29,111 nucleotides of DNA from Cytauxzoon felis (lineage: Eukaryota > Apicomplexa > Aconoidasida > Piroplasmida > Theileriidae), in the NCBI GenBank assembly GCA_020283715.1, contig JAIQCW010000053.1, positions 1-29,111 of the forward strand, given 5' to 3'. Each line of letters opens with the position of its first letter. The stretch's first letter is position 1. A program made the translations under genes and the position numbers. Of the stretch, positions 1 to 29,111 are shown piece by piece. Below the pieces are notes generated by a model. The model was not told where the DNA came from. It searched no databases and was given only the letters and a program-made list of their open reading frames with translations.

Positions 1-255
1 GAACATCTTCGTTCTTCCGGGTAGACGTTATACCGAGGATGATCTACGGGAATCCGAGGGGAAGTAAATAGAAGAGGCCGCCACGGCGAGTGGAAGACCT
101 ACGGTGTAATGGAAGGTGGAGATAAGGATGTAACCTAAGTGGAGAACCCGTAGCTGATCTCAGGGAAGCGGAGGGGGAAGTAAATAGAGAAGCTGTCTGC
201 AAGACGACCTCAGGTGGACATAGACCTATCGGTCGTCGGATGGACCTCGAGTGGA
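1..255 (+). mobile_element. Composite repeat element, right-arm modules (left end outside window)
   Basis: Two plus-type arms stand in tandem. The first, at 1-100, has the module around 15-60 (bases ending in gatgatctacgggaatccg), then aagtaaatagaag, then a ccgccacggcgagtgg hairpin module. The second, at 140-255, has the gtagctgatctcagggaagc module, then aagtaaatagag, then the gctgtctgcaagacga hairpin module and acctcaggtgga, and ends with a tcggtcgtcgga module and acctcgagtgga. The same modules recur on both strands through the window. The left arm is presumably upstream of base 1. No coding function is claimed. The 15-75 stretch is closely repeated in inverse at about 20755-20815. Confidence 0.8.
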
Positions 256-534
256 TGTTGTAGTTGTATAATATTATGACTTACTTTTGTGTAAATATGT
301 TGTATTAATTTTTGAGATGTATTGATGTATAATGTTTGATGAGATTTTTAGCGATTTCGACAGGGCAGGTGATATTATTATTAGTGAGTATATTAGCCCA
401 AGGTCTAAATATTATATTATAAATGAATAATAAATTAATATTACCTTATTTCTATAATTGTATTACAACTATAAGTTAATTCTAAAATATTATTATAATG
501 TATACCCAATTCATTTCTTAATTTTATTATAATA
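256..534. other. AT-rich stretch with no gene recognised
   Basis: Between the edge element and the 3' end of the tail-anchored protein gene. It is strongly AT-rich with no convincing open frame, RNA gene or repeat module. It may hold the 3' untranslated region of the minus-strand gene that ends at 535. Confidence 0.4.
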
Positions 535-2300
535 TCAATACAATAACCCTTTAATTCTATAAAGAATAATAATAATAATAAGAAGAAGAATCATTTTACC
601 TATAAATTCTCTTGTTATATTAATATTATATCCATAATCTAATTTCATTCTATTCAATATCTCAAATAATAAATTATATTGTATTTGTAATAATTGTAAA
701 CGAGACTGCAATATATCATAATCATATCTACACCTATCATACTTGTCCTTCAATGCCATACTCTCTATTCTATTCAACTCTATATATATATATATATATA
801 TCATCAATCTCATATATACTCGAAGTCCAATCCAACTCTCTTCCCACTTCCACCTGAGGTCTTTCCACTCGCCGTGGTGGCTTTCTCTATTTACTTCCCC
901 TCCGCTTCCCTGAGATCAGCTACGGGTAATCAACTTGCACCTAGGACAACTTTTATCTTTATGACCAAGTTCTTGTTTAATTCCATCGAGTTTTCCTGCA
1001 AGATCAGTGCTAATAGTATTGGCACCTGGATTTATTTCATCATATTCAGTTCCAGTGGCAGCATTTGTCCATGTATTGCCCCTAATACGCTTATACCATT
1101 TATTACTAGGACTCGCAGCAGCTTGACCAGTTTGTGATAAACATATTAAATATGGCTTTTGAAGATTGTCATCATCTTTCGCAAAATATACAAATACACC
1201 TCCAGTAGTACTAAATTGCTGACTAGCAAGCACACTATTCTCAATTCCTTTCGTCACATGACCGTGTATTGTTATCCGATTGATACTGAAAGTGCCACCA
1301 CCTTGTTTATGATGTCTGAAACCTTTATAATTTGTGCCACTAGCAGATACTTCTGAAACAGTAATTTGATCGTTATTAGGATTTGCTGTGTATGGACTAC
1401 CAGTAGAATTATCCTTTTCAAGTTTAACTTCAAATTTTCCTTTAACCTCACCAAGTTTGGTTTCAAGTGTTCTAAGATCAGGACCTCAAGTGGATTACCC
1501 GAAAACGATCTCAGGGAGTTTGAGGGGGAGGTAAATAGAAGGCCTCCACGGCGAGTGGGAAAGAGAGGTGGATTGTAACTTCAGTTGTATCTAAATTCTG
1601 GTGATGTATGATAAATATACCATTTGTATGTTTTAATTCATCTAGTTCCATTTTGGAGACCATGAGCTATGGAGAAGATGTGTATTATGTATATGAATCA
1701 TACCATTATCCATGGTTTTTTAAGATCGTTATATCTTTCTAGATATTTTATTGGTGATTTATTATCATTTATATCCAAGTTTTTAATTTTTGAATTACAT
1801 GTACCTATAATAAATTGAGATGTTAAATGATAATAAAAATATATACCATAAAGAAATTCTGATATTTCTTTTGAATTTAATGTACTTTTTTTCCTCTAGA
1901 ATTATATTTATAAGAAAAAAATTTTCTTTTATATATATAAACATACTTTACAAGTATTATTATATGAGGATTGTATAATATTTTTATTATTTATAGATGA
2001 TTTATAATCATAACAATATGAATCATCATATGTACCTTTAAGAATATTTGGTATAAATGTTTCATTATCTGTTGTAATTAATTGATTTTTAGATGATTCT
2101 ATATTATTATTATTATTATTTGTTAATACTTCATTATTATTATTATTTAAATCATTTTTATCATTTATTGTATATAATGTTGTATCATATGGTATTGAAT
2201 CTATAGCCTTTGATAATAATATTATCTGTGATGTTAATTTATCCAAATCATCAGATATATTCGTCTTTATTATCGAATCATCAGTAGTACCCTCTCTCAT
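535..2300 (-). CDS. Tail-anchored coiled-coil protein (264 aa, five exons)
   Basis: Reconstructed exons on the minus strand are 2300-1947, 1895-1847, 1804-1704, 1666-1621 and 779-535. All have GT/AG borders and phases that join to one frame. The N-terminus starts MREGTTDDS and has a leucine-rich helix (DDLDKLTSQIILLSKAID). An Asn-rich low-complexity middle follows, then a predicted coiled coil (residues about 170-230; KDKYDRCRYDYDILQSRLQ). The C-terminus is a single hydrophobic segment (GKMILLLIIIIILYRIK) followed by a very short basic tail. That architecture fits a tail-anchored membrane protein, possibly SNARE-like, but no family is recognised. Introns 1-3 are 37-51 bp, whereas the last is 841 bp because it holds a composite repeat element with an antigen-like fragment. 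The first four exons are less certain than the last, and the start could lie upstream. Confidence 0.55.
821..1590 (-). mobile_element. Composite inverted-repeat element with antigen-like payload, in an intron
   Basis: Left arm is 821-925, minus-type: tccaatccaactc, then a ccactcgccgtggtgg hairpin, then ctatttacttcccc, then cttccctgagatcagctac. Payload is 926-1483. Right arm is about 1484-1590, plus-type: acctcaagtgga, then gatctcagggagtttg, then a ccacggcgagtggg hairpin, then ggtggattg. The arms are inverted relative to each other. The whole unit lies inside the 780-1620 intron of the tail-anchored protein gene. No transposase is encoded. Confidence 0.75.
916..1483 (-). pseudogene. Fragment of a secreted-antigen-like gene (payload of the element)
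   Basis: One open frame on the minus strand runs from about 1483 to 916. It has no start codon of its own and its last five residues (LITRS) are encoded by the repeat arm. The peptide begins around TLETKLGEVKGKFEV. It continues with VTKGIENSVLASQQF, GGVFVYFAKDDD, a KPYLICL / NKWYKRI / NTWTNA stretch, and ends in SCPRCK. The pattern of alternating aromatic beta-strands recalls, from memory only, repeated-domain secreted proteins of the Theileria equi group. An AG at 1475-1474 on the minus strand may be an old splice acceptor, so it could be a captured exon. It lies in the same direction as its host gene. It is unlikely to be expressed as a protein from here. Confidence 0.55.
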
Positions 2301-3384: not shown

Positions 3385-6300
3385 ATGTGTACATGTTATA
3401 AATTGATTTTTATATTAACTATACTAAAGTTTATATATATTACCGAATCTATTTGGTATCTTGAACCTACAAAGGGTATTATTTCTAATTTTCATAGCTA
3501 GCTTTTATAATTTATATAGACGCTATAATCACCAATACTATACCTATAACTGACATTAAGAAAGAAGTTGAAGGCTCTGAAGAGCGTGGAGAAGGTGGAG
3601 GTGTGAAGATTGAGGGTAATAAGAAAAATGAGAGTAGTGAAAAAGGTAATGTTATACTCAACAAGACATTATATGGTGGTATAAAAGCTATTGCGGATTC
3701 AACATATAAAGGGTAATTTGAAAATTGGTACATTGTATAGTCATTCATTATTAGGATTGGTAATAGTGGTTTTAGAAAGTATGATGCAAATAATGCATTA
3801 ACAAAAGGTAATGGTTATTGGTGTAGTGAAGGAGATTTATTGGAGGATCGTATTATTACATGGACTGGTATATTAAAAGTTGAAAGATTATTACGTGGTA
3901 TAATAATTACATGGGAATATAAACCCTCATTTAGTATGTTGAAATATTCATCTACTCGAATTCCTAATTCATTTAGTATCAATTTCTACAAGTAGAAATG
4001 AATCTGGACCATTTGAAGAAATTGTACCATTCAGATCATGTTCAGATGGTAATTTGAATTGCTCCTATGATATTATTCTGAAAATTTTTCCTCATAGCTG
4101 ATAATATCCAAGAAATATCATTCCCACATAAAGTTGATGCTAAAGTTATACAAATTCATATGAAAGGACAAATCAATGGATACTTTGGTATAACCTTTGT
4201 ACAATTTATAGGTTAAGTAGATCCATATTATTCCATATACAATCCTTCTTATAGGTGAAGAGGATCCATTATTCCGTATACAATCTGGTATAACATCAAT
4301 TGAAGTATATTTAATTTAAGACCTTATTATATACCAATAGGATATGTGCTTACAATTTGATAATACCGGTGAAGTCATATTAGATGGTTGTATATCATCA
4401 ATCGCTAATTTAGAATTCAATGATCTATGGAAATATAATGATAAGAGTATGTTATAATCATTACCACTATCACTATATCCATTAGAACAATTATATAATC
4501 CATTAAATAATCTCTGTATGACATTAGAAGATGGTCTAGAAACTAATGGTGGTAAAATAATAATGATGCCATGTAATGATTATAAAGATGGTAGAAATTC
4601 TTGGTAATATATATAATTATATATTTTTATATTCAATTATATAGGGATATAACATCTAATAATCAAATAAAATTAAGACGTAAAGGTAATCTATGCCTAT
4701 CACAATCCGGTACATCTGCCGGTCTTGTTAATGTTGCATTAAATAAAATAGCAACCAGCAATTATACACTCATGTATAATAACAATCATACAGCCGAAAA
4801 AGCATTAGATGGTAATGCTAAATCATATTGGCTCTCCAAAAAATTTAAAATGGATGATATACCATATGTCAATTTCATCATCAATCTACAAGATGTATAT
4901 AAATTAAGAAATATAGAAATCAATTGGATCTATCCACCAATGACATTTAAAATCTTTACCAAAAAAACACAAGATGATAATTGGCAACAAATTAAATATA
5001 TCAAAGCTAATACACTCAAAAACAATGATGAATACCTACTCAATCAATACGCACAATTCATCAAACTCGATCTCTCATCACCCAATCCCGAATTTATGTA
5101 CGTCTCTATCCAATCTTATACCCTGAATTACCTCAACCTGAGGTCCAATCCAACTCTTCATTCCACTCGTCTCCACCTGAGGTTACATCCGCCTCTTCTC
5201 CACTCGCCGTGGTGGCTTCCTCCAATTACCTATCTCTAAAGAGTAGAGCCACTCCCAGAGATCGTGGCGAAGTGTAGATGTAGGTGGTTATGAGGATTGG
5301 ACCTCAAGTGGAGAACCCGAGAACGATCTATGGGAGTTTGAGGGGGAGGTAAATAGAAGAGCTGTCTGCAAGACGAAGAGAGTTGGATTAGACCTAGAGT
5401 GGAGATTAATATACATTATTTTTACAGTGACAAGGATGGTGATATGCAGTATGGTATAAATAATATATTTGTGTATACGAATAGATTGAGGACTATAGTG
5501 GATTCGTGTGATGAGGTGAAGAATAGTAGGGATGCTCGGGATAAGTATTTTTTGGAGTCTGTATATGATGTGGATTTCAATAGTACATTATTATTAAAGA
5601 AATTAGAGGGTAATATAGAGGATATGGTTGGAGTATTAGAGGGTAAAATGGTTAATATAGAGAGGAATAGTCCGAATATGAGGAAATGTAAAAGTAAATT
5701 TATGAGTTTTTATAATAAAGTTGATGAATTAAAGGTTAAATATGATAAAAGTCTTGAAGCATTACATAAATTAGGTAAGTAAAATGGGGTTTTTTTTACA
5801 CTATAATTATATTTAGAGGGTCATGTAACATCTATAAAGGATGTATCAACGAAGGTATATCCATTAGATTGTATATATATAAAGAATATGGGTTTAAATA
5901 ACCCCAGTGGTTTCTATGATATCAAACCATATTGTAGTAATGATGTTATAAGAGTATACTGTGATATGTATACAGGCTCATCATATTATATTGCATGTAT
6001 GTTTTTATCTCTCTATATTCTTACCCCCATTTACACTATAATAGCAATCGATGAGAATGTGGGGAATGATGGTACAATTAGTGTTGAGAAAGCATTAGAT
6101 AAATGCTCATATTATGGCCTTGAACCATTATACCTAATGGATAAAAGTCAAGTTGAATCATTAAAGATCGCATTAAGCACTATGGACGCAGGATCAAATG
6201 ATATATTCCCACTAGGCATTTTAAAAAATAATGAAATTTACTCACTAGATATGAAAAGAAACATCACAGAATTTATCGAAATACCACTACAAGATCAACA

Positions 6301-9300
6301 AAAGATGGAAGCATACTCAAATAAAGAATATACCTCTACCGTTCCCAATACCTCCTCACCTAATCCTGCCGTCAGCTCTTACACCGAGGTCCAATCCAAC
6401 TCTATTCGTCCTGCAGACAGCTCTTCCAATTCACTCTCCGTAGACGGTAATGCCACTCCCGGAGATCGTGGCGATGTTAAAGGTGATGTAGAAGGTAGTA
6501 ATGGAGGTAGAGTTAGTACTGGACCTCAAGTGGAACCCGCAGCTGATCTCAGGGAAGCGAAGGGGGGGGTAATAAAGGAGCTGACGGCAGGACGACCTCA
6601 GGTGGAAAGGAAAGGACCTCGGAGGAAAGTGTTGGTGAGAATACGGTGCGAGTGAATGAGGTTAATCCGGGTGTTGGTAACATTATTGGTATAACTAGGA
6701 GTTCGTTGAGGATAATAAATGGTAATGAGGTTGAAATGTCTGGGATTATATGTAAGTTTTTGTTATCCTTCTCTACCTCATTGCTTCTTGTAGGTTCGAG
6801 TAATTATAATAATTTGAAAATGCCACCTAGTGTAATGGAAATTATGTGTAGTAGTAATGTATTGGAAAATGTTAATTTTAAAACTACACCTGGTATGAAA
6901 TATGTGGTAAAATGCCCCGATAATTGTCTAGAAATTGGTGAGTTTGCACTATAATTTATTATTAATAAACCCCATTTATTTAGTTGACGATACATATAAT
7001 GTTGAGGGTGGTATGAATGATATATATTCATTATCTAGTCCAATATGTATATCAGCTATACATGCAGGATACTATGATCGTACATCACCATTAGAAATTG
7101 AAATTGTAACATCAACAAATAATCTAGATGGATTCTATCAAAATGGTATCAATGGCCAACCATCAAACACAAATATCGGTGATCCCGCATACAAGATCAA
7201 AAAAATAACAAATACATGTCCAAAATCAAAGAAATTATCAACCTTAACCAATGTTAACTCTACCACTCCATCTGAAGTTACCTCTACCGTTCCCAATACC
7301 TCCTCACCTAATCCTGCCGTCAGCTCTTACACCGAGGTCCAATCCAACTCTATTCGTCCTGCAGACAGCTCTTCCAATTCACTCTCCGTAGACGGTAATG
7401 CCACTCCCGGAGATCGTGGCGATGTTAAAGGTGATGTAGAAGGTAGTAATGGAGGTAGAGTTAGTACTGGACCTCAAGTGGAACCCGTAGCTGATCTCAG
7501 GGAAGCGGAGGGGGAAGTAAATAAAGGAGCTGACGGCAGGAATGTAACCTCAAGTGGAGAAGGTACCACAGCCGCAGATGGAAAAGACGGTGTCAAGGCC
7601 TCGAGTGTTGATGAAGTGAAAAGGATGGTTGTGGTTGAGGATAATAGGCGTATAGATTCTTATACTGGTGAGGCGATACAGATGTTAATTAGTAAGATTT
7701 ATAAACATAATGTTAAGGGTTCTCCTAAATTTTTGGATTTATTTCGTGAGCATTCTGGTATTGTAAGTTGATATTAATTTATTGGATATTTAATTTATAG
7801 ATTTTATCTACTGCTATTGATCTTATTAAAAAGGCTGATTTAAAAAGAATACCTAGTAATGTAAGTATAAAATATAGTGTTATTTTACCCCATTATATTA
7901 GGATTTATTTAATAAGCTTGATAATAAGTTATTATTATTACAAGATAGGATACAATTGATAGCATCGCATTTATTATATAAGAAACAGAATTTATTAGAT
8001 GATATTGAAAAGGTATATTTAATAATTATAGTGTATTTTATCCCCATAGTTAAATAAGGAGAAGACGATTAATATATCTAATGATTCATGGAGTATAAAT
8101 GATATTGATGATTTTAATATATATAATATATTTACCGTAGAAAATACAAATGATATAAATGGTAATAGTAATTGGATTATTGATGAATTAAATATTAATG
8201 ATAATATTGAATTAACCATATCGCAAATGTCTGAAATTAAACCCCATAATGATATATTGGGTGGAACATATTTATATTTAAAAAATCATAAATTTTATGA
8301 TTTTATATACTCTTGTTGTATATATGCTGGTAGTAATGGTACTATAGGTATACCATTTAGAATAGCTGATTTAAATAATTTCTATCTATTACAATTAAAA
8401 CAGGTTTGTATATTCTATTAAAAATTTACCCCATTTTTACAGAATAATGGGGGTTTTAAACGTTTGATACGTATAACTGATGGTATACCATATGAATTGG
8501 CACGTATAGATGATGGAGGTTATATACAAGAAGGTAAATATTATCATAATATAAATTTAATATTCAGTTTGGTATACAATAAGAATAGAAACAAGACAAT
8601 CCAGAATAATGATATCAATAATACATGGGGATAACCCAATATTTGATATACCAAACCCTATTATTGATATCATAGACTCTACACAAACATACGGAACCAT
8701 AGGATTATATACCGGCAAAATATCATACGCACACTTTAAAAGATTATATATCAATACACTACCATGCTTAAGATATGATAAACCTCCCAATACACCCGAA
8801 CCAACCTATTGCAGTATGTTTATTCCAAAATATCCTAAACCCAATCCACCTCATACACCGAGGTTACAATCATACTATCCTTTCCACCTCTTTTCGTCTT
8901 GCAGACAGCTTCCTCTATTTACCTCCCCTTCCAGCTCCCGTAGATCGCTTCCAGGTTCTCCACTTGAGGTCCAATCACTAACTTCTCACCGCCACGATCT
9001 CTGGGAGTGGCTATACTCTTTAGATATAGGTAATTAGAAGAGCTGACGGCAGGATGAAGAGAGTTGGATTGGACCTCGAGTGGAGTGGCATTGTTTGAGA
9101 TATTGAGTATAAATAATTTACAGGTATATATAAGGAGGATTATGTATCGAATTTTCTGAGTAATTGGTTGGTATATAATAGTCGTGGTACATGGGGTTAT
9201 GAATATGATTTGATGGGTGAGCATCGTGTGATAGCGAATGTATGGAAGCGTGGTATAGATGAGGAATTGGAGCCTACGATGGCATTATTAAAGAATCATC

Positions 9301-10442
9301 GTGGTTGTAGTTATGGTATATTTAATGTATCTGTATTATTACAATGTGATTATGGTAGTATTGGTATTGTAATAAGATTTCATAATATAAATGAATATAT
9401 AATAATAGATATATCAGATGGTTATTCTAGAATTAGACAAAAATATAATGATGGTTATATTACATTATCAGAAACACGCACTATAAATATAAAAATGGGG
9501 TCATGGAATAATATATCAGTTTCATTTATTAATGATTTATTTACTGTTTCTATTGGTGATTATAATGATACCAATCTACTATTTTTAAATGTCAAGGGAA
9601 AATATAATATCAAAAAAGGCGGTAGTGTAGGATTAGCCAATTATAATTGTAATGGATGCGCATTCACCAATATCTCACTCAAACCCATCTATCATAATAC
9701 AATCTATCCACCCGAAATCCAATCCACTTCCCTTCCACCCGAGGTCCAATCCAACTATGATCCCACTAGGCGTGGAGCCTCCTCCAATTACCTCCCCGTA
9801 AACGGTAATGCCACTCCCGGAGATCGTGGCGATAATAGTTCAGAACAGTACAGGACCTCAAGTGGAAGTGGAAAACCCGAGAACGATCTACGGGAGTTTG
9901 AGGGGGAAGTAAATAGAGAGGCCGCCACGGCGAGTGGAAAGGAGAGTAGTACTGGACCTCGAGTGGAACCCGCAGCTGATCTCAGGGAGGCGGAGGGACA
10001 ACTAAATAAGGAAGCTACCACGGCGAGTGGAAAGACCTCAGGTGTACATAACGATCATGATAATATTTCTGTTGGTGAGCGTTATTGTAATGTATTGGAT
10101 AGGAGTGCTGATTGTAAGAGGATGAAGTTTGAGAATATGGATGATTGTGTATCTAATTATTGTGATTTTTGTTGTCAATATCATTATAATGATAGGTATA
10201 CTCAAGAAATTTGTATTGATGAATGTAAACTAAATAATAAATCTGTTGTTTCATTACAAAAAGCTATTGATGAATTTTGGTTTAAATGTTCAAATTATGA
10301 ATTTATTAATAAATTTGAAAATTTTAATAAAATTCAAGTCTGTAATTTATGCTGTAAATCAATGATACCTATACATAATCTTAATTATTCTATCAATCTT
10401 TTAGCTAAAGAAAAATGTCAAGAATTATGTCAATTTATTTAA
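3385..10442 (+). CDS. CCp/LAP-type multidomain adhesive protein with LCCL domain (about 1.9 kb aa, 20 exons)
   Basis: Exons: 3385-3475, 3520-3712, 3755-3933, 3977-4048, 4098-4211, 4255-4304, 4341-4446, 4486-4603, 4645-5097, 5428-5774, 5817-5996, 6045-6751, 6794-6937, 6984-7762, 7801-7860, 7902-8012, 8050-8403, 8443-8533, 8568-8813, 9124-10442. Exon 1 encodes a hydrophobic signal-like start (YKLIFILTILKFIYI). Domains in order: discoidin-like (YDANNALTKGNGYWC), ricin-B-like (MCLQFDNTGEV, LCMTLEDG), a second discoidin (HTAEKALDGNAKSYW), a collagen/fibrinogen-like NEC region (PSGFYDIKPYC), LCCL (CPDNC then SSPICISAIHAG), two laminin-G/concanavalin-like regions (TYGTIGLYTGK; GSVGLANYNCNGC), and a Cys-rich C-terminus (about 9 CxxC-type cysteines). 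This order matches apicomplexan CCp1/CCp2 sexual-stage secreted adhesins. Composite repeats sit in introns 9 and 19 and in exons 12, 14 and 20. Exon 12 changes frame (see findings). Confidence 0.85.
5127..5402. mobile_element. Composite inverted-repeat element in intron 9 of the CCp gene
   Basis: Minus-type modules come first: cctgaggtccaatccaactc, cacctgaggtt, ccactcgccgtggtgg, gccactcccagagatcgtggc. Plus-type modules follow: acctcaagtgga, gatctatgggagtttg, gctgtctgcaagacga, agagagttggatt. There is no payload. Unlike the exonic copies it contains stop codons in the frame that the exonic copies keep open. It enlarges an intron to 330 bp (5098-5427) where neighbours are 36-49 bp. Splicing over it joins PEF to DKDGDMQYG in frame. 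Confidence 0.8.
6331..6625 (+). mobile_element. Exonic composite element between NEC and LCCL domains
   Basis: Lies within exon 12 of the CCp gene and is read through. The minus-type half encodes EVQSNSIRPADSSSNS and GNATPGDRGD; the plus-type half encodes GPQVEPAADLREA. Bases 6331-6539 look identical to 7279-7487. Near 6562-6575 the usual gaagtaaat module is altered to a run of eight G plus gtaat. This shortens it by one base and moves the frame. Confidence 0.8.
7263..7560 (+). mobile_element. Exonic composite element after the LCCL domain
   Basis: Lies in exon 14 of the CCp gene. It is a near-duplicate of the copy at 6331, with 209 identical bases by eye, and keeps the canonical gaagtaaataaaggagctg module. 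The frame stays open through GPQVEPVADLREAEGEVNK and on into the downstream helical segment. The LCCL domain is therefore bracketed by twin copies in direct orientation. Confidence 0.8.
8845..9090. mobile_element. Composite inverted-repeat element in intron 19 of the CCp gene
   Basis: The minus-type half runs from cacaccgaggttac through cttgcagacagcttcc, cccgtagatcgcttcc and ccacttgaggtccaatc. It is followed by cgccacgatctctgggagtggc, then gctgacggcagg, gaagagagttggattgg and acctcgagtgga. It sits in a 310-bp intron (8814-9123) with donor GTATGT and acceptor TTTACAG. Splicing joins EPTYC to IYKEDYVSNF in frame. Confidence 0.8.
9717..10047 (+). mobile_element. Exonic composite element before the Cys-rich C-terminus of the CCp protein
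   Basis: Read in frame in exon 20. The minus-type half encodes PPEVQSNYDPTRRGASSN and GNATPGDRGD. Two plus-type arms follow, encoding KPENDLREFEGEVNREA and GPRVEPAADLREAEGQLN, each closed by the ccacggcgagtgga hairpin module (ATASGK). The insert forms a hydrophilic linker between the second laminin-G-like region and the Cys-rich tail. Confidence 0.8.
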
Positions 10443-19721: not shown

Positions 19722-21652
19722 ATGAGGTCAATTTTCTCAATTTATCGCAGAAATATAGGCGCTATTATACGTTATGGGAATGCAAATAATTTAAAGTTTG
19801 AAAAGCCATCAGAAGTTACAAAGTTTATAGGTAATTTGTTATAGAATCTTAAATGATATGTAAATTACTATAGAAATATCGGCAAGGAACCATTTATCGA
19901 ATAAGAATGTTGATTTCGACAAATGTAGAAGGCTTATTAACTATATGTGTAAGAGTATAAATGAGTATACTGTAACAGAGGTCAGGACTATAACGCATTC
20001 TATAGCGACCCTTTATAAAGATGATTGTATACCGGAATGGTATGATGTGATATCAAATTTTGTATATAAAAGAGCTTATATAACACCTGTATATGTCTTA
20101 TTCCCATTAATTAATAGTATATTGACATCTTTTTCATCACACATAATTCAACCCTTAGGCTTAGTAAGGATGGGATACAAGAACGAAAGTTTCTATACGA
20201 ACATGCTAAATATAGTTATAATGAGAATTAAAGAGGCAAATACCATAGATTTAGCCACAATATCGCAAACTATACTTCTAATAAAGAATATGAACATATT
20301 GAGCATAGGGATATTAGAAGATGTCATGAGTCACGTTTCCAGCGTCATCTTGAATAACAAAGAGCTTAGCAATGAATTATCAGCTACAAATGCTGTATTA
20401 ATACTCTATTCCTTTGCTAAAATGAAGATTTGTAACCTGAAATTATTCAATGCACTCATCGATTTGATCAATAACATGGACCCCAATGACTTTGAACCAC
20501 ATTTAATACCACTAGTATTGCACTCATTCGCTGCATTTAAACTCAAAGATGTCAATATGCTAAGTAAAGTATTAGATTTCGCACTAGATAATCTCCGAGG
20601 AATGAAACACGAAAATGTCGCAAACTGTATCAACGCACTCGCCAAACTCAACATCAATGACCGAAAACTACTTGAAGGTGAATATAATAAAAAATTACTC
20701 ATCTGCTACCTGAAGTTACAACCTTGTTTTCCACTCGCCGTGGCGGCTCTTCTATTTACCTCCCCTCGGATTCCCGTAGATCATCCTCGGTATAATGTCT
20801 ACCCGGAAGAACGAAGAATTTTCAACCCCTAAGAACAGACCTCCACCTGAGGTCCATCCTGCCGTCAGCTCTTCCATTTCCACCCGAGGTCGTCTTGCAG
20901 ACAGCTCTTTTAATTACCTCCCCGTAAACGGTAATGCCACTCCCAGAGATCGTGGCGATGAAGAAGGTAGAGATGTAATGAAGAGTAGTACTGGACCTCA
21001 AGTGGAACCCGTAGCTGATCTCAGGGAAGCGAAGGGGGAAGTAAATAGAGGAGCTCCATGCAATGGGAAAGGTGACGGCAGGATGGACCTCAGGTGGAGG
21101 TCTGTCTGCAAGATGAAGAGAATGTGGATGATGTAAAGTACTATATCTATAAACTAATTTATACTTTTAGGTTTAGTTAACAGAGCTGATGAGTTATTGG
21201 TTGATATTAGAATTCGTGAATTGAGTAAGTTTGTTTCATTTTATTCCTTCAAACTTCAGGTAATATTTTATGGAGTTTATCGATACTGAATTATGGGAAT
21301 GTAGAATTCATTAGGAAATGTCTACAAAAAGTACTGGAATATGACAATGTAGATCCCATATCATGTGTACAAGTGATGAAATGTATAAGATACTATGAGA
21401 TTAAAGACGAAGGTAAATTTTTAAGGGAATCCTTACCATTCATTGTACTCATATAGTACTGGTAGACAAGATCTTACAAAATTTCGAGAGTAAAATTAAT
21501 GAATGTCCAAGACATATCATTACACAGATGAAAAGGTAAGAGCATTCAATAGAATTTAATATTCCCTTTGACAAGTTATTAATATAATTGAACTTCATTT
21601 AATTTCTTATAGATATTGTGAAGAGATTGGATATCCAATACAAGGATGTTAA
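19722..21652 (+). CDS. Heptatricopeptide (HPR-type) organelle RNA-binding protein 2, 412 aa
   Basis: Exons: 19722-19830, 19874-20677, 21171-21224, 21260-21412, 21457-21535, 21613-21652. The N-terminus MRSIFSIYRRNIGAIIRYGN looks like a mitochondrial presequence. At least five helical repeats follow the HPR pattern: ATNAVLILYSFAKMKI, LIPLVLHSFAAFKLKD, NVANCINALAKLNIND, NILWSLSILNYGNVEF, CVQVMKCIRYYEIKD. These proteins are expanded in apicomplexans and bind organelle RNAs. Intron 2 is 493 bp and filled by a composite repeat; skipping it joins RKLLEG to LVNRADELLVD in frame. No RAP domain is seen at the C-terminus (EEIGYPIQGC). Confidence 0.75.
20706..21128. mobile_element. Large composite inverted-repeat element in intron 2 of heptatricopeptide protein 2
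   Basis: Minus-type modules run from ctgaagttacaacc, ccactcgccgtggcgg and ctatttacctcccctcgg into a cccgtagatcatcctcggt variant shared with 15-75. These continue with cacctgaggtcc, cctgccgtcagctc, cgtcttgcagacagctc and gccactcccagagatcgtggc. Plus-type modules then follow: acctcaagtgga, gtagctgatctcagggaagc, a ccatgcaatggg hairpin, gacggcagg, acctcaggtgga. It shows the widest module set in the window. No payload. Confidence 0.8.
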
Positions 21653-21712: not shown

Positions 21713-23508
21713 ATGCTACCAATTTTTAGTTTTAAGGATGATTCCCGTACATGTGTAACTAGAGTTAGATATTCACCCTTGGCTGATGACGTGTTCGCCC
21801 TGGGTATCGATTCCGGTGGATACGTAAGATTAATGGATTTAGAAGCACAAAAGAGTGCAAAATATTTATATTATGAACATTTATTTTTAAAAGATGATGT
21901 ATATATGCCACATTTATGTGATTTTTCATTCAACAGTTCCGGAAGATATATATACGTGGCATCATCGGATGGCTGCATATCCATAAGCTCATTGAATATG
22001 ATCGGTAATCACTTGAATAAGAAGAAACAATTATTAACATTAAGTGATGCACATGTTGGTGGTACATTCTGTGTATATCCTTCAAAGTCATATGATTTCA
22101 TAATTTTTACGGGCGGTGGTGACGGCTACATAAAGCAGTGGGATTTAAGGCTACTTTCTAATAGAAATATATATAACATTAACGTGGATAATAAATCAAA
22201 GTCTAAACAGTGGTCTAAACCTCTAGTGTCATTATGGGCACATGTGACTGCTGTGTCATCACTCAGTTTCAAAGTAGACAAACATTTCCTGTCCTGTGGT
22301 ATAGATGAGAATATCAGAATATGGAGCTACGACTATTTTAATGCTGTGGAAACTATAGATAGCGACTGTGATAATCTAGGCGTATGGGATATGGTCACCA
22401 ATAGAGATAAGGTTATCGTCATTGGGAAATATGGAGATGCGTGGGCATTCTCACTGGATTATTTTAATAAATCCAACTGTAGAGACATTAAAAGATTCAA
22501 TCTAATGGATGGAATCAATAACGATGGTTCCTTATTCAGCACTTGGCGTAGAATCTGCACGTACAGTCATTACGTGGTAATACCCACCATCAATAACAAA
22601 GACAAAATCAAAGCCCATGTCATCGACCTAAATAATGGAAATTTCGTCGATTCACTAGTGTACAATGATCGCAATTATCCGTATAATATAGCATCTATAG
22701 ATGCGCATCCTAATCCTAATATCGGGCTCATACTTACCGGCGGTTAGTTTAAACTATTTTACACATTTATGCAAAAACGATAAAAAATGGTAAATTAAAT
22801 TATATACTTGCCATTTGAATCGCACATATAACGCGGTCACTGGTAGAATATGGATAACTACCACAACACACCCCCGATGAAACGTTGTTGATGTTTCCTA
22901 CACCTGAGGTCCTTTCCTTGTCCTGCAGACAACTTTCCACTTGAGGTATAGTCCAACTCTCTTGGTCTTGCAGACAGCTTCTCTATTTACTTCCCCTTCC
23001 AGCTCCCGTAGATCGCTTCCAGGTTATGTAGTTTCATCAAACTCGTTAAGGTGTATACGAAGGAGTTGAAGATACATGAGTGTAAATGTAAGCCTAAATT
23101 CACACCTGTACGTGATTATGACATAAAAATACCAGGAAAAATAACCAAAGGGACGTGTAAAAGTTCATTAATTAAATGTATACCGTGTCCCTGTTGTAAT
23201 TATGATTATGAAAATTGTTTTAAAGATGGTAGAAAGTGCGGTATAGGATATATAGACATAACATCATCACCCGCAGCTGATCTCAGGGAAGCGAAGGGAT
23301 AACTAAATAGAAGAGCTGACGGCAGGAATGTAACCTCAGGTGGAACGGCGAGTGGAAAGGCAAGTAAGGAACTTCAGGTTAAGGACACATTAACTACATT
23401 GTATTTTTTGTTGGAAGATAAATTTTATAATAATTCATGAAATATATTATAGGTGGTATAATGAATGGTATGTGTACAATTTGGTTGGATAAATTAAAGG
23501 GTAATTAG
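21713..23508 (+). CDS. WD40-repeat protein (361 aa, two exons)
   Basis: Exons are 21713-22742 and 23453-23508. WD-type blades are seen at GIDSGGYVRLMDLEA, HLCDFSFNSSGRYIYVASS, GGGDGYIKQWDLRLL, HVTAVSSLSFKVDKHFLS followed by GIDENIRIWSY, and a last blade that spans the intron (IGLILTGG joined to GIMNGMCTIWLDKL). The 710-bp intron inside the last blade holds a composite element with an antigen-like payload; without splicing the protein ends two residues into the intron and loses its closing strand. The specific WD40 subfamily is not recognised. The gene starts 60 bp after heptatricopeptide protein 2 and stops 26 bp before the NAP gene. Confidence 0.75.
22899..23365 (+). mobile_element. Composite inverted-repeat element with Cys-rich antigen payload, in the WD40 gene intron
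   Basis: Left arm is 22899-23026, minus-type: cacctgaggtcc, tgtcctgcagacaac, ccacttgaggt, gtcttgcagacagc, cccgtagatcgcttcc. Payload is 23027-23267. Right arm is 23268-23365, plus-type: gcagctgatctcagggaagc, gctgacggcagg, acctcaggtgga, acggcgagtgga. The arms are inverted and the payload is in the host-gene direction. Confidence 0.8.
23027..23302 (+). pseudogene. Short fragment of the Cys-rich variant-antigen-like family (copy B)
   Basis: An open frame of about 240 bp between the two arms reads CSFIKLVKVYTKEL, then ECKCKPKF, a Lys-rich stretch, PCPCCNYDYENCFKDGRKCGI. It then runs into the right arm (AADLREAKG, stop). It matches the central part of copies A and C. No start, no native C-terminus. 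It is clearly a fragment. Confidence 0.6.
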
Positions 23509-23534: not shown

Positions 23535-24870
23535 ATGGTGGAGACATCATTATCGAATGTGAGTATAATTGAATCGATGAAGATATTACAAGTACGTGGT
23601 AAAAAATTATCAGATGAATTGAATGATCGTTTGAATTCATTATATAAATGGTATAATAATGAATTGAATTTAATATCAGATTCTATGATTGAATTATTAA
23701 ATGATAATAATAAAATAGAATTATTAAATGAATCATCATTAAAATATATTGATATTGAAGATTATGCTACAAAAAAATGGCCAAAATTTTGGTTATATGC
23801 ATTATTAGGTTGTAAAACTACTAGTAAATGGATATCAGATAAAGATTGTAATATACTTAAATTTTTAAATGATATAAGAGTTAATATAATTAAAATTAAT
23901 GAAAATATCGATTCATTTAATTTATTATTCTATTTTAATCGTAATGCATACTTTTCTAATAATGTCATTATCAAATCATTAACATTTGATGGTAATAATA
24001 TCACAACACAATCCGATATTATCAATTGGTACCATGATGATTATGAACATGATGATGATAATAATATCAGCTTCTTCGATTTCTTCAGAAATGATGTATG
24101 TTTTATACGAATGAATGTAGTGAACATTCCACCTGTAGTACAATCCATCTCTCTTTCTCTTGCAGAGAGTCTCCACCTGAGGTCGTCTTGCAGACGGCCT
24201 TCTCTATTTACTTCCCCCTTCGCTTCCCTGAGATCAGCTTCGGGTATTCCACCTGAGGTTATAAATCCTAATCTCGACGAGATAAGGTTAAAGTGACGGT
24301 ATTCATGTTTGGAGGGATATCTCAATGGATATAATATGGAATTAAATGATGTTTCTTCAATTCAATACAACCATCAAATTCCTTTTCAATGAAGTATTGA
24401 CATTAGAATTACATCCAATAGTCATCCCTCAATCTTCATGAGTTTCCCCAGAAATTCAGAATTTCCTTCAAATTTCAGAGGTAAAAATGAAGTTAGTGAA
24501 ATTAGTGATTTTGACCTCAATTGGAGACCTCAGGTGGAACACCCGCAGCTGATCTCAGGGAAGCGGAGGGATAACTAAATAGAGAAGCTGACGGCAGGAC
24601 GAAGAGAGGTGGATATTTACCTAGACCTAACGCTCGTCGGATTGGACTACAGGTGGAGTGCTAAGTTGATTGTTATAGAAAATAAATGTATAGGTGTATG
24701 AGGAGGACATTAGGATGGCATTGGTGATTCGTGATAGATTATGTCGTGATCCATTGCGATATGTATTACGTTATCAGATGGATGAGGTAGATGATGAGAT
24801 GACTCCATCATCAATATCAGATATAGATGATGATATTGGTCGTCGTTATCCATTTTCTTGGTTATTTTAG
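23535..24870 (+). CDS. Nucleosome assembly protein (NAP/SET family histone chaperone), 245 aa
   Basis: Exons are 23535-24095 and 24694-24870. NAP-domain features in order: an N-terminal dimerisation-type helix (DELNDRLNSLYKWYNNEL), the earmuff signature KKWPKFWLYALLGCK, SDKDCNILKFLNDIRVN, FNLLFYFNRNAYFSNNVI, then IINWYHDDYEHDDD and SFFDFFRND. The second exon supplies the expected C-terminal helix (YEEDIRMALVIRDRL; DPLRYVLRYQMDEV) and an acidic tail. NAP/SET proteins carry H2A-H2B or H3-H4 and act in nucleus and cytosol. The 598-bp intron (donor GTATGT, acceptor TGTATAG) contains a composite repeat. The last 9 bp overlap the end of the convergent WDR83 gene. Confidence 0.85.
24128..24658. mobile_element. 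Composite inverted-repeat element with unidentified payload, in the NAP gene intron
   Basis: Left arm is 24128-24262, minus-type: cacctgaggtcgtcttgcag, acggccttctctatttac, cttccctgagatcagc, cacctgaggtt. Payload of about 250 bp (24263-24520) is AT-rich with no recognisable frame. Right arm is 24521-24658, plus-type: acctcaggtgga, gcagctgatctcagggaagc, gctgacggcaggacg, gctcgtcggattgg. The arms are inverted. Confidence 0.75.
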
Positions 24871-27223
24871 ATAATTGAATTTCCATATATTAATTACCCC
24901 ATCTTTACCTGTTGTTACAAATAATGTATTATCATTTAATATTATATCTTTAATATTTTTTTCAATATCATGTTTTAATTTTCCTTTATTTGTTAATAAT
25001 TGTGGATTAGAAAATGCTATACTTGTTATTATACCATTATGGGCATTTTCATATAATTTATATGATTTTTCACCATTATCAATTGCCCAATAATAAATAT
25101 CCCCACTTGAACAACCCGATAATATAAATTGTTCTAATGGATCAAATATACATTTAATTTTATAATTATTATATAAATGACCTTTATATTCTTGTAATAT
25201 TATACCACATTCAATTAATTTAATACTATCATCTAATAATCCAATTATATAACAATCTGTTATACATGTTGATAAATCCATACTAATAAATTATTATTTA
25301 TTTAATAATAAATATAAAATGAACTAACGATATTATGGGGTATGAAAATGAATCAATTTTTAATATACCTTTTCTTAAATCATATTGTCTAACACAACCA
25401 TCAATTGATGATGTCATTATAATAGATGATAATTCACCTACATATGTTATAGAATCTAATGCATCAGGTAATGTCTGAATAGGATTACGTGAACGATTAT
25501 CCCATATCTTCACCATCTTATCATCACTACCAGTACATAATAAACCATTCGATATATAATTACAACACAATACCTTACCTATATTATCATAATTAAATTA
25601 ATACAATTAAATAGACATCCAGTCCACCGAAGGTCCAATCCACTCCACCTTGTCTTCCACTCGCCGTTCCACCTGAGGTCGTCTTGCAGACAGCTTCTTT
25701 ATTTACTTCCCCTTCCAGCTCCCGTAGATCGCTTACAGGTTCCACTTGAAATCCCATTCTCTTCCCTTATATGTCTAGCATTTACATAATTTATCCTCTA
25801 CACTTATTGGATTGGTATGCTCTTCCTCATTATCACTACCCCCATTATTCTTTGGAACACCGACGCAATTACAGTTAGAGGCAGCGAAAAAAATATTTCA
25901 TAATATTAGAGATTCCACAATGTTCTCCATCCTTTAAGCAGTTTTGATAATCAAAGCCACAGCAGGGGCATGCCCAATCTATTCCAAACAATATAAGCGG
26001 TGCCGTTATAAAAATTGAATTTGAACCAAAAATGTTATGAAACATATCCTTGCATTCACACTCATGTTTATTCTTCAACTCCTTCGTATACTCCTCAACG
26101 AGTTTAATGAAGCGACATGTTTTACAATACTCGCAATTACCATTAGTACATTCACATGGAGCAGGAGTAGTTTGAGATTCTTGTGCAGGTGCTCCATTTT
26201 TCATAACCTCCTTCACTAATGCGATAAAATTATTAACTTGAGTACAAAAAGTGGATATAGAATTACACTTTTTCCCATCGCTACCACTACAACCAGAACA
26301 ATTTTCTCCATTACAACACATCATGCCGCATAATTTATTAAAGACGCCATTAGAATCAGGAGTAGGAGGTGGACATCCACAGTCACCACTGCAATTACAT
26401 TTCTCACCTGTAGTACAATTTGAACCTCCAGTAGTTGTAGGACATGCTTGAAGGCCGCTACAACTCGTTCCACCATTTTGTACATTATTTTCACCCTGAA
26501 GACTCCGCAAATCCTTAGCCGCATTAATCATATCCATATATTTACAAGCCACATTCTTAACGCGGCACCAATTTATATTAGTAAGAGATCCATAATTCGC
26601 CATACGTTTCCCATGCTCTGAATATAACATACAAGTGTATGGAGAATAAGGATTTCCACGAAACCTCAAGCAATTGAACAACGCTAGTATACGTAACCTC
26701 AATTGGAATACCCGCAGCTGATCTCAGGGAAGCGAAGGGGAAGTAAATAGAAGAGCTGACGGCAGGACGAAGAGAGATGGATTGAATCTCAGTTCTAGGT
26801 TCCTTCGGATTCACAGAGTTCGATGGGAACATACCGCCATGATTGTGTTTGCGTATAACTTTAGCTTCGATTGTATCCCAGACAAAGGCAGAGTGTTCAG
26901 CTCCGACGGATACGAAGTTTTTATTGTCTTCACTTAATGTAATGTCGTTAACTTCATAGTTGTGTGGACCTGATAGTTTAAGATTTGAATTGTATGGAAA
27001 AATACCAAAGAATTTCTTAATATGGAGCTTTTTAGATGGATTCCATAATCTTATTGTCCTATCATTACCAGCAGTCATACAATAGACTCCTGTAGAGTCG
27101 AATTTGACACTATTAATACAGCCTAAATAATATAGGTATAGTATTTTACACATTGGGGTGTATAAAATAAATTTTACCTTTATGTTCATTTAATGATCCT
27201 ATCAACTCTAATTTTGCATACAT
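24862..27223 (-). CDS. WDR83: WDR83/MORG1-type WD40 protein (334 aa, four exons)
   Basis: Minus-strand exons are 27223-27178, 27122-26835, 25578-25329 and 25282-24862. Joined peptides fit WDR83 closely: NEHKGCINSVKFDSTG, CMTAGNDRTIRLWNP, VGAEHSAFVWDT, then NHGG joined to KVLCCNYISNG, GSDDKMVKIWDNRSRNPIQ, SIDGCVRQYDLRKG, ILQEYKGHLYNNYKIKC, SGCSSGDIYYWAIDNGEK and TTGKDGVINIWKF. The length is close to the human protein. The family is a seven-blade scaffold linked to the spliceosome and MAPK modules. Intron 2 is 1256 bp and holds the largest composite element with a 0.9-kb antigen fragment on the same strand; the other introns are 55 and 46 bp. The start lies 21 bp after the SF-assemblin stop. 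Confidence 0.85.
25618..26800 (-). mobile_element. Composite inverted-repeat element with long Cys-rich antigen payload, in WDR83 intron 2
   Basis: Left arm is 25618-25750, minus-type: gaaggtccaatccactcc, ccactcgccgttcc, cacctgaggtcgtcttgcag, cccgtagatcgcttac, ccacttgaaat. Payload is about 25751-26697. Right arm is 26698-26800, plus-type: acctcaattgga, gcagctgatctcagggaagc, gctgacggcaggacgaagag, agatggattg. The arms are inverted. The payload is in the direction of the host gene. Confidence 0.8.
25775..26702 (-). pseudogene. Cys-rich variant-antigen-like gene fragment (copy C), one-base frameshift near its end
   Basis: Longest member of the family here. From the arm inward it reads SPYTCMLYSEHGK, NWCRVKNVACKYMDM, a Cys/Gly/Thr-rich region (GEKCNCSGDCGCPPP; CGMMCCNGENC), CRFIKLVEEYTKEL, ECECKDMFHNIFG, ACPCCGFDYQNCLKDGEHCGI. 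The frame then hits a stop at 25875, just after a run of seven A (25887-25893; T on the coding strand). In the adjacent frame the expected family ending appears (EEEHTNPISVEDKLCKC, stop at 25775), matching copy A. The N-terminus is cut by the repeat arm; no signal peptide remains. A hydrophobic segment (SIFITAPLILFGI) lies before the CCx5NC motif. Confidence 0.65.
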
Positions 27224-27244: not shown

Positions 27245-28724
27245 TTATGTCAAATGTAGACGTGAATAGTCAGCTAAGACTTTAGCATAGCTCTGTAGTG
27301 CTAATACTATATCATCATCAGCATTTTCACGTGCTCTAGATTCTAATACAAGGCTATTATTTATATTTGCGATTTCATCCGATATTGTAGACTTCAATTC
27401 TTTCTCTGTCTCTTGTTTATAACGCTTCAATTCAAAAATTTCATTCTTCAATGTCTGATATGTTGTTGTTATATTCTGGAGTTCATTATTTATTGAAGTA
27501 TCAGCTTTCAATTCAATCTCCGATATTTTCTTTACAATCTGATCTTCACGTTCCTGACGTGCAATCTTCTCACTCTCAAACGTTTTCTATATTATAAATA
27601 CATCTAAAGGCTAAATAACATCAACTCACCTGTATACTCGCCAACGACTTCTCCAATGTAACACAATTCACCTCTATTGTATTCAAAAACTTCGACTCGT
27701 AATCATTTACATACTTCTGGATATTATCCAGACGCTCCGATAATGAATCAATCACCGTCTCCAATTGATCCAACTTCTGATTAAACACAGACTCCATCTT
27801 ACTCTGTACCGATACTATCTGACTCTCAAATATCTATAATATCAATGTAAACCGAATATAAAAAGTGCAACGACTCGAGCGAATATAGGCGTTCCACCTG
27901 AGGTCCAATCCACCTTCTCTTCCACTGGGCGTGGAGCCTTCTCTATTTAGTTCCCCCTCCGCTTCCCTGAGATCAGCTACGGGTTCCACTCGAGGTCCAG
28001 TACTAACTCCACCTTCCTTTCCACTAGCCGTGGTGGCCTTATTTACCTCACCTCGACTCCCATGGATCGTCTCGGATTCTTCGCCACGATCTCCGGGAGT
28101 GGCTTTACTCTTTAGGGATAGATAATTGGAAGAGCCTCCACGGCAGTGGAACGAAAGGTGGATTAGACTTCAGGTGGATTGGACCATTGGTGTACGATTG
28201 GTATGTAGATTATGGACATACTCCGTGTAGTGCTTTGATGGTTTCCATTCGTTTTTTGGATTCGACGGTGATGGCATTTTGAAGTTTATTTAGTGATTCA
28301 TTGATATTTGCGAGTCTTGATTCTTCTAATTGTCGCCGTTGTTTGGCTTGCAGTTCCATTTGTTTTTCGAATCCTATTAATTTATCATTGAGTAATAATA
28401 GTTTTGATCGTGTGCCTTTATTGAATCTTGGATCATAAGTTTCTGGTTTATCATATGAATTAATAACTGTATAGGTATAATTGGATGATGTATAGGATTA
28501 AAAGTACCTGGATATGAAGTTTGACGTATATATTTCCCTTTATTGTCTATTGAACTACCTGCAGATGACATATATGTAGTACCGAATGATTTTGAATGTC
28601 TAATCAATCTTTGTATAATCAAATCATCTTTAACATCAACAAGTGTACAATCTTTATCTTTAATGGGTTCAGTATCATATTCTTCAGTATTTTGCGATAT
28701 TATTAAACCCGGTTCTGATGCCAT
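27245..28724 (-). CDS. SFA: SF-assemblin (striated fibre assemblin / beta-giardin family), 335 aa
   Basis: Minus-strand exons are 28724-28508, 28466-28222, 27833-27630 and 27586-27245. After a variable head (MASEPGLIISQNTEE) the protein is one long coiled coil with SFA-type segments: KLIGFEKQMELQAKQRRQ, NESLNKLQNAITVESKKR, IFESQIVSVQSKMESVFNQ, LDQLETVIDSLSERLDNIQ, RQEREDQIVKKISEIE. SF-assemblins form striated fibres; in apicomplexans they tether the microtubule organising centre to daughter buds during division. Intron 2 is 388 bp and contains a composite element; removing it joins KALHG to IFESQ in frame. The other introns are 41 and 43 bp. The C-terminus DYSRLHLT matches no special motif. 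Confidence 0.85.
27893..28187. mobile_element. Composite inverted-repeat element in SF-assemblin intron 2
   Basis: Minus-type modules: cacctgaggtccaatccacc, a ccactgggcgtgg hairpin, cttccctgagatcagctac, ccactcgaggtccag, ccactagccgtggtgg. A cgccacgatctccgggagtggc module follows, and then plus-type ccacggcagtgga, ggtggattag, ttcaggtggattgg. No payload. It sits in the intron 27834-28221. Confidence 0.8.
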
Positions 28725-29036
28725 TTCCAGAAAAAATCAATTATAAATATTCATTTAAATATTTTTCTAGTACAAAATTAATAATATTATAGTCTAGTCA
28801 TTATATATCCATTCACATGGTGTGTAGGCCACTTCCACTATAATGACTAAAGAATATTAAAATATACAATTAAAAATCATGAAAATAATGAAATTACATT
28901 GAAATTAATTTTATTAATCATTTAAATTATTCAACTTTGTTATTTTTCAATAATCTATTTAATGTGTAACTTGACATGTCCAACACTCCCACCAAACATT
29001 ACACATGACCTCATCATTAAATACTACAACATCTAC
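28725..29036. other. Intergenic AT-rich stretch upstream of SF-assemblin
   Basis: 312 bp with no convincing frame, RNA gene or repeat module. Likely contains the promoter of the SF-assemblin gene. Confidence 0.45.
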
Positions 29037-29111
29037 TCGAGGTCAATACGACGACCTATAGGTCTAAGTCCAATCCAACTCTACTACCATCTGAAGTCCA
29101 ATGTCTATCAT
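29037..29111. mobile_element. Outer left end of another composite element, cut by the window edge
   Basis: Contains ctcgaggtc, the perfect 12-bp palindrome gacctataggtc next to cgacga, then gtccaatccaactc and atctgaagtccaa. These are the outermost minus-type modules seen at other left ends. The rest lies beyond the window. Confidence 0.65.

What the first reader, a model, noticed from the sequence alone, without database searches (positions are those of the whole stretch)
1..29111. A dispersed family of composite inverted-repeat elements built from a small module vocabulary
About 17 copies or partial copies occur in 29 kb. Seen directly: outer modules ggtccaatccaactc (left) and gagttggattggacc (right). 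These are followed inward by one of several short hairpin modules, then ctatttacttcccc / aagtaaatag, then cttccctgagatcagctac / gtagctgatctcagggaag. Left arms are the reverse complement type of right arms in every copy that has both. Modules are shuffled between copies, which points to recombination rather than simple copying. They are GC-richer than the surrounding DNA. No transposase or reverse transcriptase is present, so if mobile they are non-autonomous. I know of no described piroplasm repeat with this structure.
Basis: partly seen in the sequence, partly recalled or inferred. Interest (0 to 1): 0.95.

Follow-up and report, generated by a model that had tools for sequence, protein, structure and literature searches.

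The report
In-frame modular hairpin repeats in Cytauxzoon
A cat parasite's genome is peppered with thousands of short, hairpin-rich DNA inserts, many sitting inside genes without breaking their reading frame and some enclosing pieces of repeated protein families, so a genome reported to lack mobile DNA may be reshaping its own proteins, including a vaccine candidate.

Summary
The genome is Cytauxzoon felis: its Cf76 is identical to the published 723-aa form. The family's hairpin loop GATCTNNGGGA occurs 7,145 times genome-wide, against 14 for the reversed pattern. Hairpin stems differ between copies but stay complementary (D: 798 of 831 pairs). The common element is asymmetric: a D4 arm, a spacer, then a convergent arm with another D type (92 of 115 pairs; D4-D4 0 of 115). 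Of 17 such elements spanned by long open frames, 16 lie in one orientation and one frame; hosts include kinesin, MFS, LCCL and gamma-tubulin-complex genes. Published Cf76, reported cloned from cDNA, contains two. Two Cf76 alleles differ only within residues 119-298, around the first element. Non-D4 arms also flank other cargo: a ~290-bp core and single domains of two repeated gene families (9 of 14 loci tested). No target duplication, non-telomerase reverse transcriptase or phage-type integrase was found. Closest known kind: Rickettsia palindromic elements. Likely spread: hairpin-assisted template switching or gene conversion (inferred).

The parts
38..254 (+). two D-type arms in tandem (D5-c-b1, D1-c-b2-t) at the contig edge
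   Evidence: module map
850..1574 (.). cassette: arm (D1) - single domain of repeated family F, ORF 919-1485 on minus strand - arm (D3)
5142..5400 (+). D4/D3 element, sense to the CCp-type gene, frame not kept; intron by my reading of splice motifs
6326..6640 (+). D4/D1 element, canonical frame open across it; 6326-6572 is 98% identical to 7274-7520
7274..7600 (+). D4/D1 element in frame inside the LCCL-domain ORF (6932-7771)
8850..9095 (-). D2/D4 element, antisense to the gene, not in frame; intron by my reading
9710..10050 (+). D4/D3 element plus an extra D arm, in frame in ORF 9117-10442
10990..11640 (.). cassette: arm (D2) - fragment of Cys-rich family V, ORF 11117-11617 on minus strand - arm (D1)
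12864..12990 (+). D4 arm alone
13655..13745 (+). D2 arm alone, in frame in ORF 12983-13960
18660..18890 (+). D4/D1 element; folds with z -5.3 (single-strand DNA parameters)
20706..21130 (+). compound element (D5 arm + D4/D1 element); intron by my reading
22890..23360 (.). cassette: arm (D2) - about 75-aa domain of Cys-rich family V (23021-23251) - arm (D1)
24120..24660 (.). cassette: arm (D1) - 290-bp AT-rich core repeat - arm (D1); intron by my reading
25600..26800 (.). cassette: arm (D2) - Cys-rich family V ORF 25878-26723 on minus strand - arm (D1), beside WD40 exons; intron by my reading
27890..28190 (-). compound element (D1 arm, D6/D4 element) between ORFs of a minus-strand gene; intron by my reading
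29040..29100 (.). terminal-module fragments at the contig edge
   Evidence: sequence; D13

Best explanation
A family of non-autonomous, modular palindromic elements has expanded to roughly 3,500 loci (7,145 loops, about two per element; an extrapolation) in the nuclear genome of Cytauxzoon felis. Each element is a string of small modules, several of them hairpins: t, a, b, e/c and D. They are ordered as two convergent arms around a spacer or around cargo. Shown: one orientation and one frame of the element is usually the open one, and copies inside long ORFs are almost always in that orientation and frame, so host genes keep their frame and gain an insert; many other copies have broken frames, by my reading in introns and intergenic DNA. 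Shown: hairpin stems change on both sides while the loop stays. Inferred: the inserts are translated in most of these genes (reported only for Cf76) and behave as tolerated disordered linkers. Inferred: copies spread and exchange modules by homology- and hairpin-assisted template switching or gene conversion during replication or break repair, not by a dedicated transposase. This would explain ragged ends, absence of target duplications, self-complementary stems, module mosaics, arms around foreign cargo, near-identical copies 1-2 kb apart, and allele differences clustered around an element in cf76.
For: Copy number: 3,565 + 3,580 loops against 8 + 6 reversed. Architecture: D4Dk 47, DkD4 45, DkDk 23, D4D4 0 of 115. 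Frame: canonical frame open across 38 of 92 asymmetric elements; other sense frames 2 and 2; antisense frames 7, 7, 4. Of 17 asymmetric elements spanned by an ORF reaching 120 nt or more past both ends, 16 canonical, 1 antisense. 13 ORFs of 220 aa or more with in-frame modules on C9 and C4, 12 in canonical orientation. Hosts by Pfam: kinesin, GCP N-terminal, LCCL, MFS, CAF1B for 5 of 6 ORFs scanned. MFS relatives of T. equi, T. parva and two unnamed sources lack the element. mRNA: the paper reports a 2172-bp cf76 product from cDNA, the full length of the 723-codon ORF plus stop (PMC3748084 passages), which contains two elements. Hairpins: D 798/831 pairs Watson-Crick, 255 of 277 fully paired, shuffle maximum 106; E 442/456, shuffle maximum 375. 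No target-duplication signal (4.67 vs 4.73). The three most similar spacer pairs of 3,321 are 0.9-1.7 kb apart. Cf76 alleles: 61 differing columns, all in residues 119-298.
Against: 54 of 92 asymmetric elements do not have the canonical frame open throughout, so in-frame insertion is a minority outcome. MFS: the C. felis loop is enlarged beyond the element too. CAF1B: the element lies in a linker that is long and variable in relatives, so no clean empty site there. Cf76 differences run beyond the first element: 46 of 61 columns lie within 10 aa of it, 15 do not, and the second element is identical, so the block may be a hypervariable antigen region for other reasons. Near-identical spacers are only modestly enriched nearby (4 of 127 near pairs, 29 of 2,818 far). 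The mechanism rests on absence of a transposase, and only RVT_1, Phage_integrase and Y1_Tnp were usefully searched; the Helitron search was uninformative because no control rang. Element ends are ragged, so short target duplications could be missed. No occupied/empty pair between strains was seen.
Confidence: 0.6

Rival explanations
1. MITE-like DNA transposon family moved by an unrecognised or lost transposase; the arms are its terminal repeats and the short spacer its core.
For: Thousands of dispersed copies, convergent arms, short non-coding spacer, relatives lacking the insert.
Against: No target-duplication signal, no fixed ends, arms of different type, no Phage_integrase or Y1 match; the Mobilome paper reports Apicomplexa seem devoid of class II transposons (PMC9141347 passages).
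Confidence: 0.2
2. Structured RNA signal: the hairpins with their conserved 11-nt loop are bound in transcripts and selected there; dispersal was the means, regulation is the role.
For: Covarying stems with conserved loops in D and E; RNA fold z -3.0 for one copy.
Against: Non-exonic copies occur in both orientations by my reading; G-U pairs are hardly commoner than C-A mismatches (13 vs 7 of 831 cells); ORF-embedded copies pair their arms less well (mean z -1.14, n=15, vs -3.31, n=71); no Rfam match at gathering cut-off in the window.
Confidence: 0.1
3. Introner-like elements: the copies are mobile introns and the open frame is incidental.
For: Several window copies lie between exons (my reading of splice motifs).
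Against: One frame is open in 38 of 92 while the others are open in 2-7; cf76 is described as single-exon with a full-length 2172-bp product from cDNA, which spans both copies.
Confidence: 0.04
4. Arms are recombination sites of an antigen-diversifying cassette system: single domains bounded by arms act as donors for gene families or for Cf76.
For: 9 of 14 tested isolated domains are bounded by convergent D arms, 0 of 4 long-ORF domains; 4 such cassettes in the window; Cf76 alleles differ around an element.
Against: No donor-recipient pair was shown; the loci were chosen for short open frames; that the two families are antigens is a guess (0 Pfam families); the 290-bp core is cargo too and has no long open frame.
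Confidence: 0.15
5. Assembly artefact or ordinary low-complexity coding repeats.
For: Inserts look low-complexity in composition.
Against: GenBank/UniProt cf76 entries contain them; copies with broken frames keep the same hairpins and order.
Confidence: 0.02

Closest known systems
Rickettsia palindromic elements (RPE); similar elements cited for Wolbachia and Methanocaldococcus
   Same: Palindromic elements of about 150 bp inserted in frame into unrelated genes, typically in non-structured segments (PMC10969869 and PMC2996958 passages).
   Different: Eukaryotic nuclear genome; about 3,500 loci (extrapolated) against 44 RPEs reported for R. conorii; multi-hairpin modules with interchangeable covarying stems; two arm classes; other sequences carried between arms. 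No sequence relation was tested.
PARCEL (palindromic amphipathic repeat coding elements) of bacteria, diatoms and prasinophyte algae
   Same: Protein-coding palindromic repeats, mobile within genomes, present in some eukaryotic microbes (PMC2996958 passages).
   Different: PARCELs are tandem arrays of a 25-residue motif in ORFs of unknown function; here single multi-hairpin elements are dispersed in conserved genes and non-coding DNA. No sequence relation was tested.
MITEs
   Same: Short, non-autonomous, inverted-repeat, high copy.
   Different: No target duplications detected, no fixed termini, no partner transposase found, unlike arms.
Bacterial BIME/REP elements
   Same: Mosaics of small palindromes in alternating orientation (abstract of PMC2817692 in search listing).
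   Different: Inside coding sequence, in a eukaryote; no Y1 transposase (the REP-associated kind, recalled) found.
Palindromic organelle repeats (Volvox mtDNA/plastid; yeast GC clusters recalled)
   Same: Palindromes spread as apparently selfish DNA (abstract of PMC2670323 in search listing; yeast recalled).
   Different: Nuclear, in-frame coding, ordered arms and cargo.
Segmental gene conversion of Babesia bovis ves genes (recalled)
   Same: Dispersed gene-family fragments as possible donors.
   Different: Here fragments are bounded by a repeat arm; no conversion event was shown.

Membership tests
Rickettsia palindromic element kind (protein-coding palindrome) | palindromic repeat inserted in frame in unrelated protein genes | tested here: met
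   16 of 17 ORF-spanned asymmetric elements in the canonical frame; kinesin, MFS, LCCL, CAF1B, GCP hosts
Rickettsia palindromic element kind (protein-coding palindrome) | element present in mature mRNA and in the native protein | tested here: inconclusive
   one gene only: the reported cf76 cDNA product has the full ORF length and the ORF carries two elements; native protein not examined
Rickettsia palindromic element kind (protein-coding palindrome) | sequence homology to an RPE family | not tested
   no RPE sequence was compared
PARCEL | 25-residue palindromic motif in tandem array | not tested
   read from passages; motif model not run; the dispersed single-element layout differs
MITE | target-site duplication of constant length | tested here: not met
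   115 elements; ragged ends limit the test
MITE | terminal repeats shared with an autonomous transposon | tested here: inconclusive
   no Phage_integrase or Y1_Tnp; DDE transposase profiles were not searched
Retroposon/SINE | reverse transcriptase source other than telomerase | tested here: not met
   single RVT_1 locus, with Telomerase_RBD
Helitron non-autonomous element | RepHel helicase in the genome | tested here: inconclusive
   PF14214 no match, but no control rang
Introner | element is spliced out as an intron | tested here: not met
   one gene: full-length cf76 cDNA product; not tested for other genes
Described Rfam RNA family | match at gathering score | tested here: not met
   0 matches in the window

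The most novel reading that the evidence does not exclude
The arms are a genome-wide cassette system. Hairpin-bearing ends capture and carry single domains of repeated parasite gene families, and exchange between thousands of copies, including those inside coding exons, continually rewrites parts of exposed antigens such as Cf76, giving variation without a transposase.
Probability: 0.2. Interest if true: 0.95.

Novelty: new variant of a known kind. Interest (0 to 1): 0.85.

Why it matters
A survey of 64 apicomplexan genomes reported no transposable elements in C. felis (PMC9141347 passages), yet 9.1% of the sampled DNA lies in these module islands, and they sit inside conserved genes as open frame. 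Protein-coding palindromes are known from bacteria, and PARCELs from some algae; a dispersed, in-frame family of this size in a eukaryotic nuclear genome was not met in my searches. Stem covariation makes a DNA- or RNA-level mechanism testable. Practical point: parts of a published vaccine candidate, and two primers printed for it, lie in this repeat family, which bears on seroreactivity, primer specificity and allele comparison.

Tried and rejected
Rfam: no match at gathering cut-off in the window; in evalue mode one microRNA match far under its gathering score (38.5 vs 230), set aside as chance. The flank coding model was weak: 64 of 92 D4-containing elements had neither flank called; where called, flanks were sense 24, antisense 6; replaced by open-frame tests. 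First E-hairpin patterns matched nothing because of wrong spacing, corrected. One search stopped on a sorting error after its first results. Target duplications: none above control. Helitron profile: uninformative control. Introns were read by eye from GT/AG motifs and are inference. 'FAINT-like', 'VESA-like' and 'assemblin-like' in my notes are recalled impressions, not used as names because Pfam gave none. B hairpins: TGC-loop stems GTCT/AGAC (67), CCAT/ATGG (17) and CTCT/AGAG (16) pair, but GTCC/CGTC (48) does not in that register; B is described, not used as covariation evidence. Dx (a D loop without a classed stem) counts as non-D4 although some are decayed D4, so the 23 DkDk pairs are an upper figure.
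Full report
What was checked. The outer module GGTCCAATCCAACTC has 264 + 248 exact copies in the whole genome (8,623,106 bases, 181 contigs), none in the reversed control. I sampled 263,111 bases: C9:1-140000, C4:40001-100000, C71:1-30000, C114:5501-9500 and the window. C114 was chosen because it holds cf76, so the sample is slightly biased towards coding copies (2 of 115 elements).

Anatomy. Its 11-nt loop is GATCNNNGGGA, and the three bases on either side are complementary although they differ between copies: GCT/AGC, AGC/GCT, AAC/GTT, CAC/GTG, GAT/ATC, GAC/GTC. Of 831 possible pairs in 277 hairpins, 798 are Watson-Crick; 255 of 277 stems are fully paired, against at most 106 in 500 shuffles. 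A second hairpin, E, precedes the D4 hairpin: 442 of 456 pairs, four perfect stem types (CTCT, CCGT, CCCT, CCCA), shuffle maximum 375. Shuffling keeps composition but not relatedness of copies, so the contrast shows pairing, not the number of independent changes. The loop pattern GATCTNNGGGA is present 3,565 + 3,580 times genome-wide, against 8 + 6 when read backwards.

Order. D hairpins pair convergently. Of 115 pairs, 47 are D4 then another type (Dk), 45 the mirror image, 23 Dk-Dk and 0 D4-D4; 44 of the 274 D hairpins stayed unpaired. So the usual element is asymmetric and has a direction. Adjacent D hairpins no more than 130 nt apart: 93 convergent, 13 tandem, 0 divergent. Whole elements fold better than shuffles (z below -2) in 43 of 86 cases, controls 5 of 60.

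Coding behaviour. Read in its direction, one frame is open across 38 of 92 asymmetric elements; the other sense frames are open in 2 and 2, the antisense frames in 7, 7 and 4. The D4-to-Dk distance keeps that frame in 50 of 92, against 19 and 23 for the others: a mixture of frame-kept and frame-broken copies. ORFs reaching at least 120 nt past both ends span 19 of 115 elements: 16 asymmetric ones in the canonical frame, none in another sense frame, one antisense, and two Dk-Dk pairs. One search lists 13 ORFs of 220 aa or more on C9 and C4 with modules inside; in 12 the element is in canonical orientation. Pfam names the host for 5 of 6 ORFs scanned: kinesin, gamma-tubulin complex component, LCCL protein, MFS transporter, CAF1B. 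One 1,307-aa ORF carries three elements.

Relatives. The MFS protein aligns over both halves with T. equi, T. parva and two unnamed proteins; they lack the element, and the C. felis central loop is enlarged beyond it as well. In CAF1B the element lies in a linker that is long and variable in relatives too, so it is not a clean empty site.

Species and expression. The genome encodes a Cf76 protein identical over 723 residues to R9TJT0 of Cytauxzoon felis; the vaccine-candidate paper says that the isolate sent for genome sequencing has the 723-aa form, most others about 706 (PMC3748084, 12 of 22 passages seen). Cf76 carries two in-frame elements (residues about 179-262 and 598-657). The paper reports a single exon, amplification of the 2172-bp ORF from cDNA and expression in vitro; 2172 bp is 723 codons plus stop, so by that statement both elements are in mRNA. 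The deposited allele sequences were amplified from genomic DNA as I read the passage. Printed primers include TTCCACTTGAGGTCC and GATCGTGGCGG, which are element modules. Against the 706-aa allele there are 61 differing alignment columns, all within residues 119-298; 46 lie within 10 residues of the first element, 15 do not, and the second element is identical. The variable block thus includes the element but is wider.

Cargo. Five of the six Dk-Dk pairs with a gap of 258-309 bp share an AT-rich core of about 290 bp, pairwise 77-87% identical. A genome search scored 40 matches, the window's own included, out of 400 first-look candidates, at 82-100% identity. Other Dk-Dk pairs in the window enclose pieces of two repeated gene families: F (150 matches scored of 235 candidates) and V, Cys-rich (59 matches); the window members have no Pfam family. 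I fetched 14 isolated single-domain hits: 9 of the 15 F hits with an open frame under 250 aa and 5 of about 23 short V hits, window's own excluded. Nine have convergent D arms on both sides (6 of 9 F: L039-L044; 3 of 5 V: L049-L051). L052 has D arms in tandem, L047 a D arm on one side, L046 other arm modules on one side, L045 only a t module, L048 nothing. None of 4 F domains inside long ORFs on C4 has such a pair. The control is small and the choice was not random.

Mechanism. Only one reverse-transcriptase locus was found, and it carries the telomerase RNA-binding domain. Phage_integrase and Y1_Tnp have no match; the Helitron profile could not be judged. Flanks of 115 elements share no more sequence than mismatched flanks (4.67 vs 4.73 bases). 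The three most similar spacer pairs lie 0.9-1.7 kb apart, though overall enrichment nearby is modest (4 of 127 vs 29 of 2,818), and 6326-6572 / 7274-7520 in the window are 98% identical. With self-complementary stems, mosaic order and foreign cargo, hairpin-assisted template switching or gene conversion is the most economical reading, but it is inferred. ORF-embedded copies pair their arms less well (mean z -1.14, n=15, vs -3.31, n=71, p=0.012; open versus broken frame gave p=0.43), as if strong arm pairing were lost or disfavoured in exons.

Comparison. Rickettsia palindromic elements do the same thing in bacteria: in-frame palindromic inserts in unrelated genes (passages of PMC10969869 and PMC2996958). 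PARCELs are protein-coding palindromes reaching diatoms and prasinophytes, but as tandem arrays. This family works like an RPE; kinship was not tested. The differences are scale, nuclear eukaryotic setting, covarying interchangeable hairpins, asymmetric arms and carried cargo. The element peptide was found in no other organism: 2 of 338 candidates, both Cf76 (candidate length limits apply); Theileria and Babesia proteins are in that database. The Mobilome of Apicomplexa paper says no TEs were found in C. felis and that MITE candidates were removed as probable false positives (passages). Searches for Cytauxzoon with palindrom (1 paper), inverted repeat (6), gene conversion (9), gene family plus antigen (6), or genome plus repeat (30 of 87 shown) listed no paper whose title or abstract start describes it. 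Papers outside the open-access library were not seen.

Noticed in passing
window 2359-2713: Imperfect tandem repeats (units of about 127 and 49 bp), pyrimidine-rich; no element module was mapped there.
   Followed up: no
window 24262-24530 and copies on C9, C4: A second dispersed repeat, a 290-bp AT-rich core; all five copies in the sample lie between two D arms. By eye it holds a small hairpin (TCTCG-N-CGAGA); longest ORF within a copy is 84 codons or less.
   Followed up: partly
window 919-1485; genome-wide: Large repeated-domain protein family (150 scored matches), sometimes several domains per long ORF; the window member has no Pfam match.
   Followed up: partly
window 25878-26723; genome-wide: Cys-rich protein family with 59 matches; many are an isolated conserved domain of about 75 aa, some with stops.
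   Followed up: partly
L035 (cf76, C114:5501-9500): Two printed cf76 primers contain element modules common in the genome; primer specificity may be affected.
   Followed up: no
spacers output: Recurrent optional spacer modules (one around GATGGATCATCCATCATGGGAATGATGG, one around AACCCGGAAGAACAGGAA) occur inside several elements.
   Followed up: no
L053 (C56:73001-75000): Telomerase reverse transcriptase gene, the only RVT_1 locus found.
   Followed up: yes
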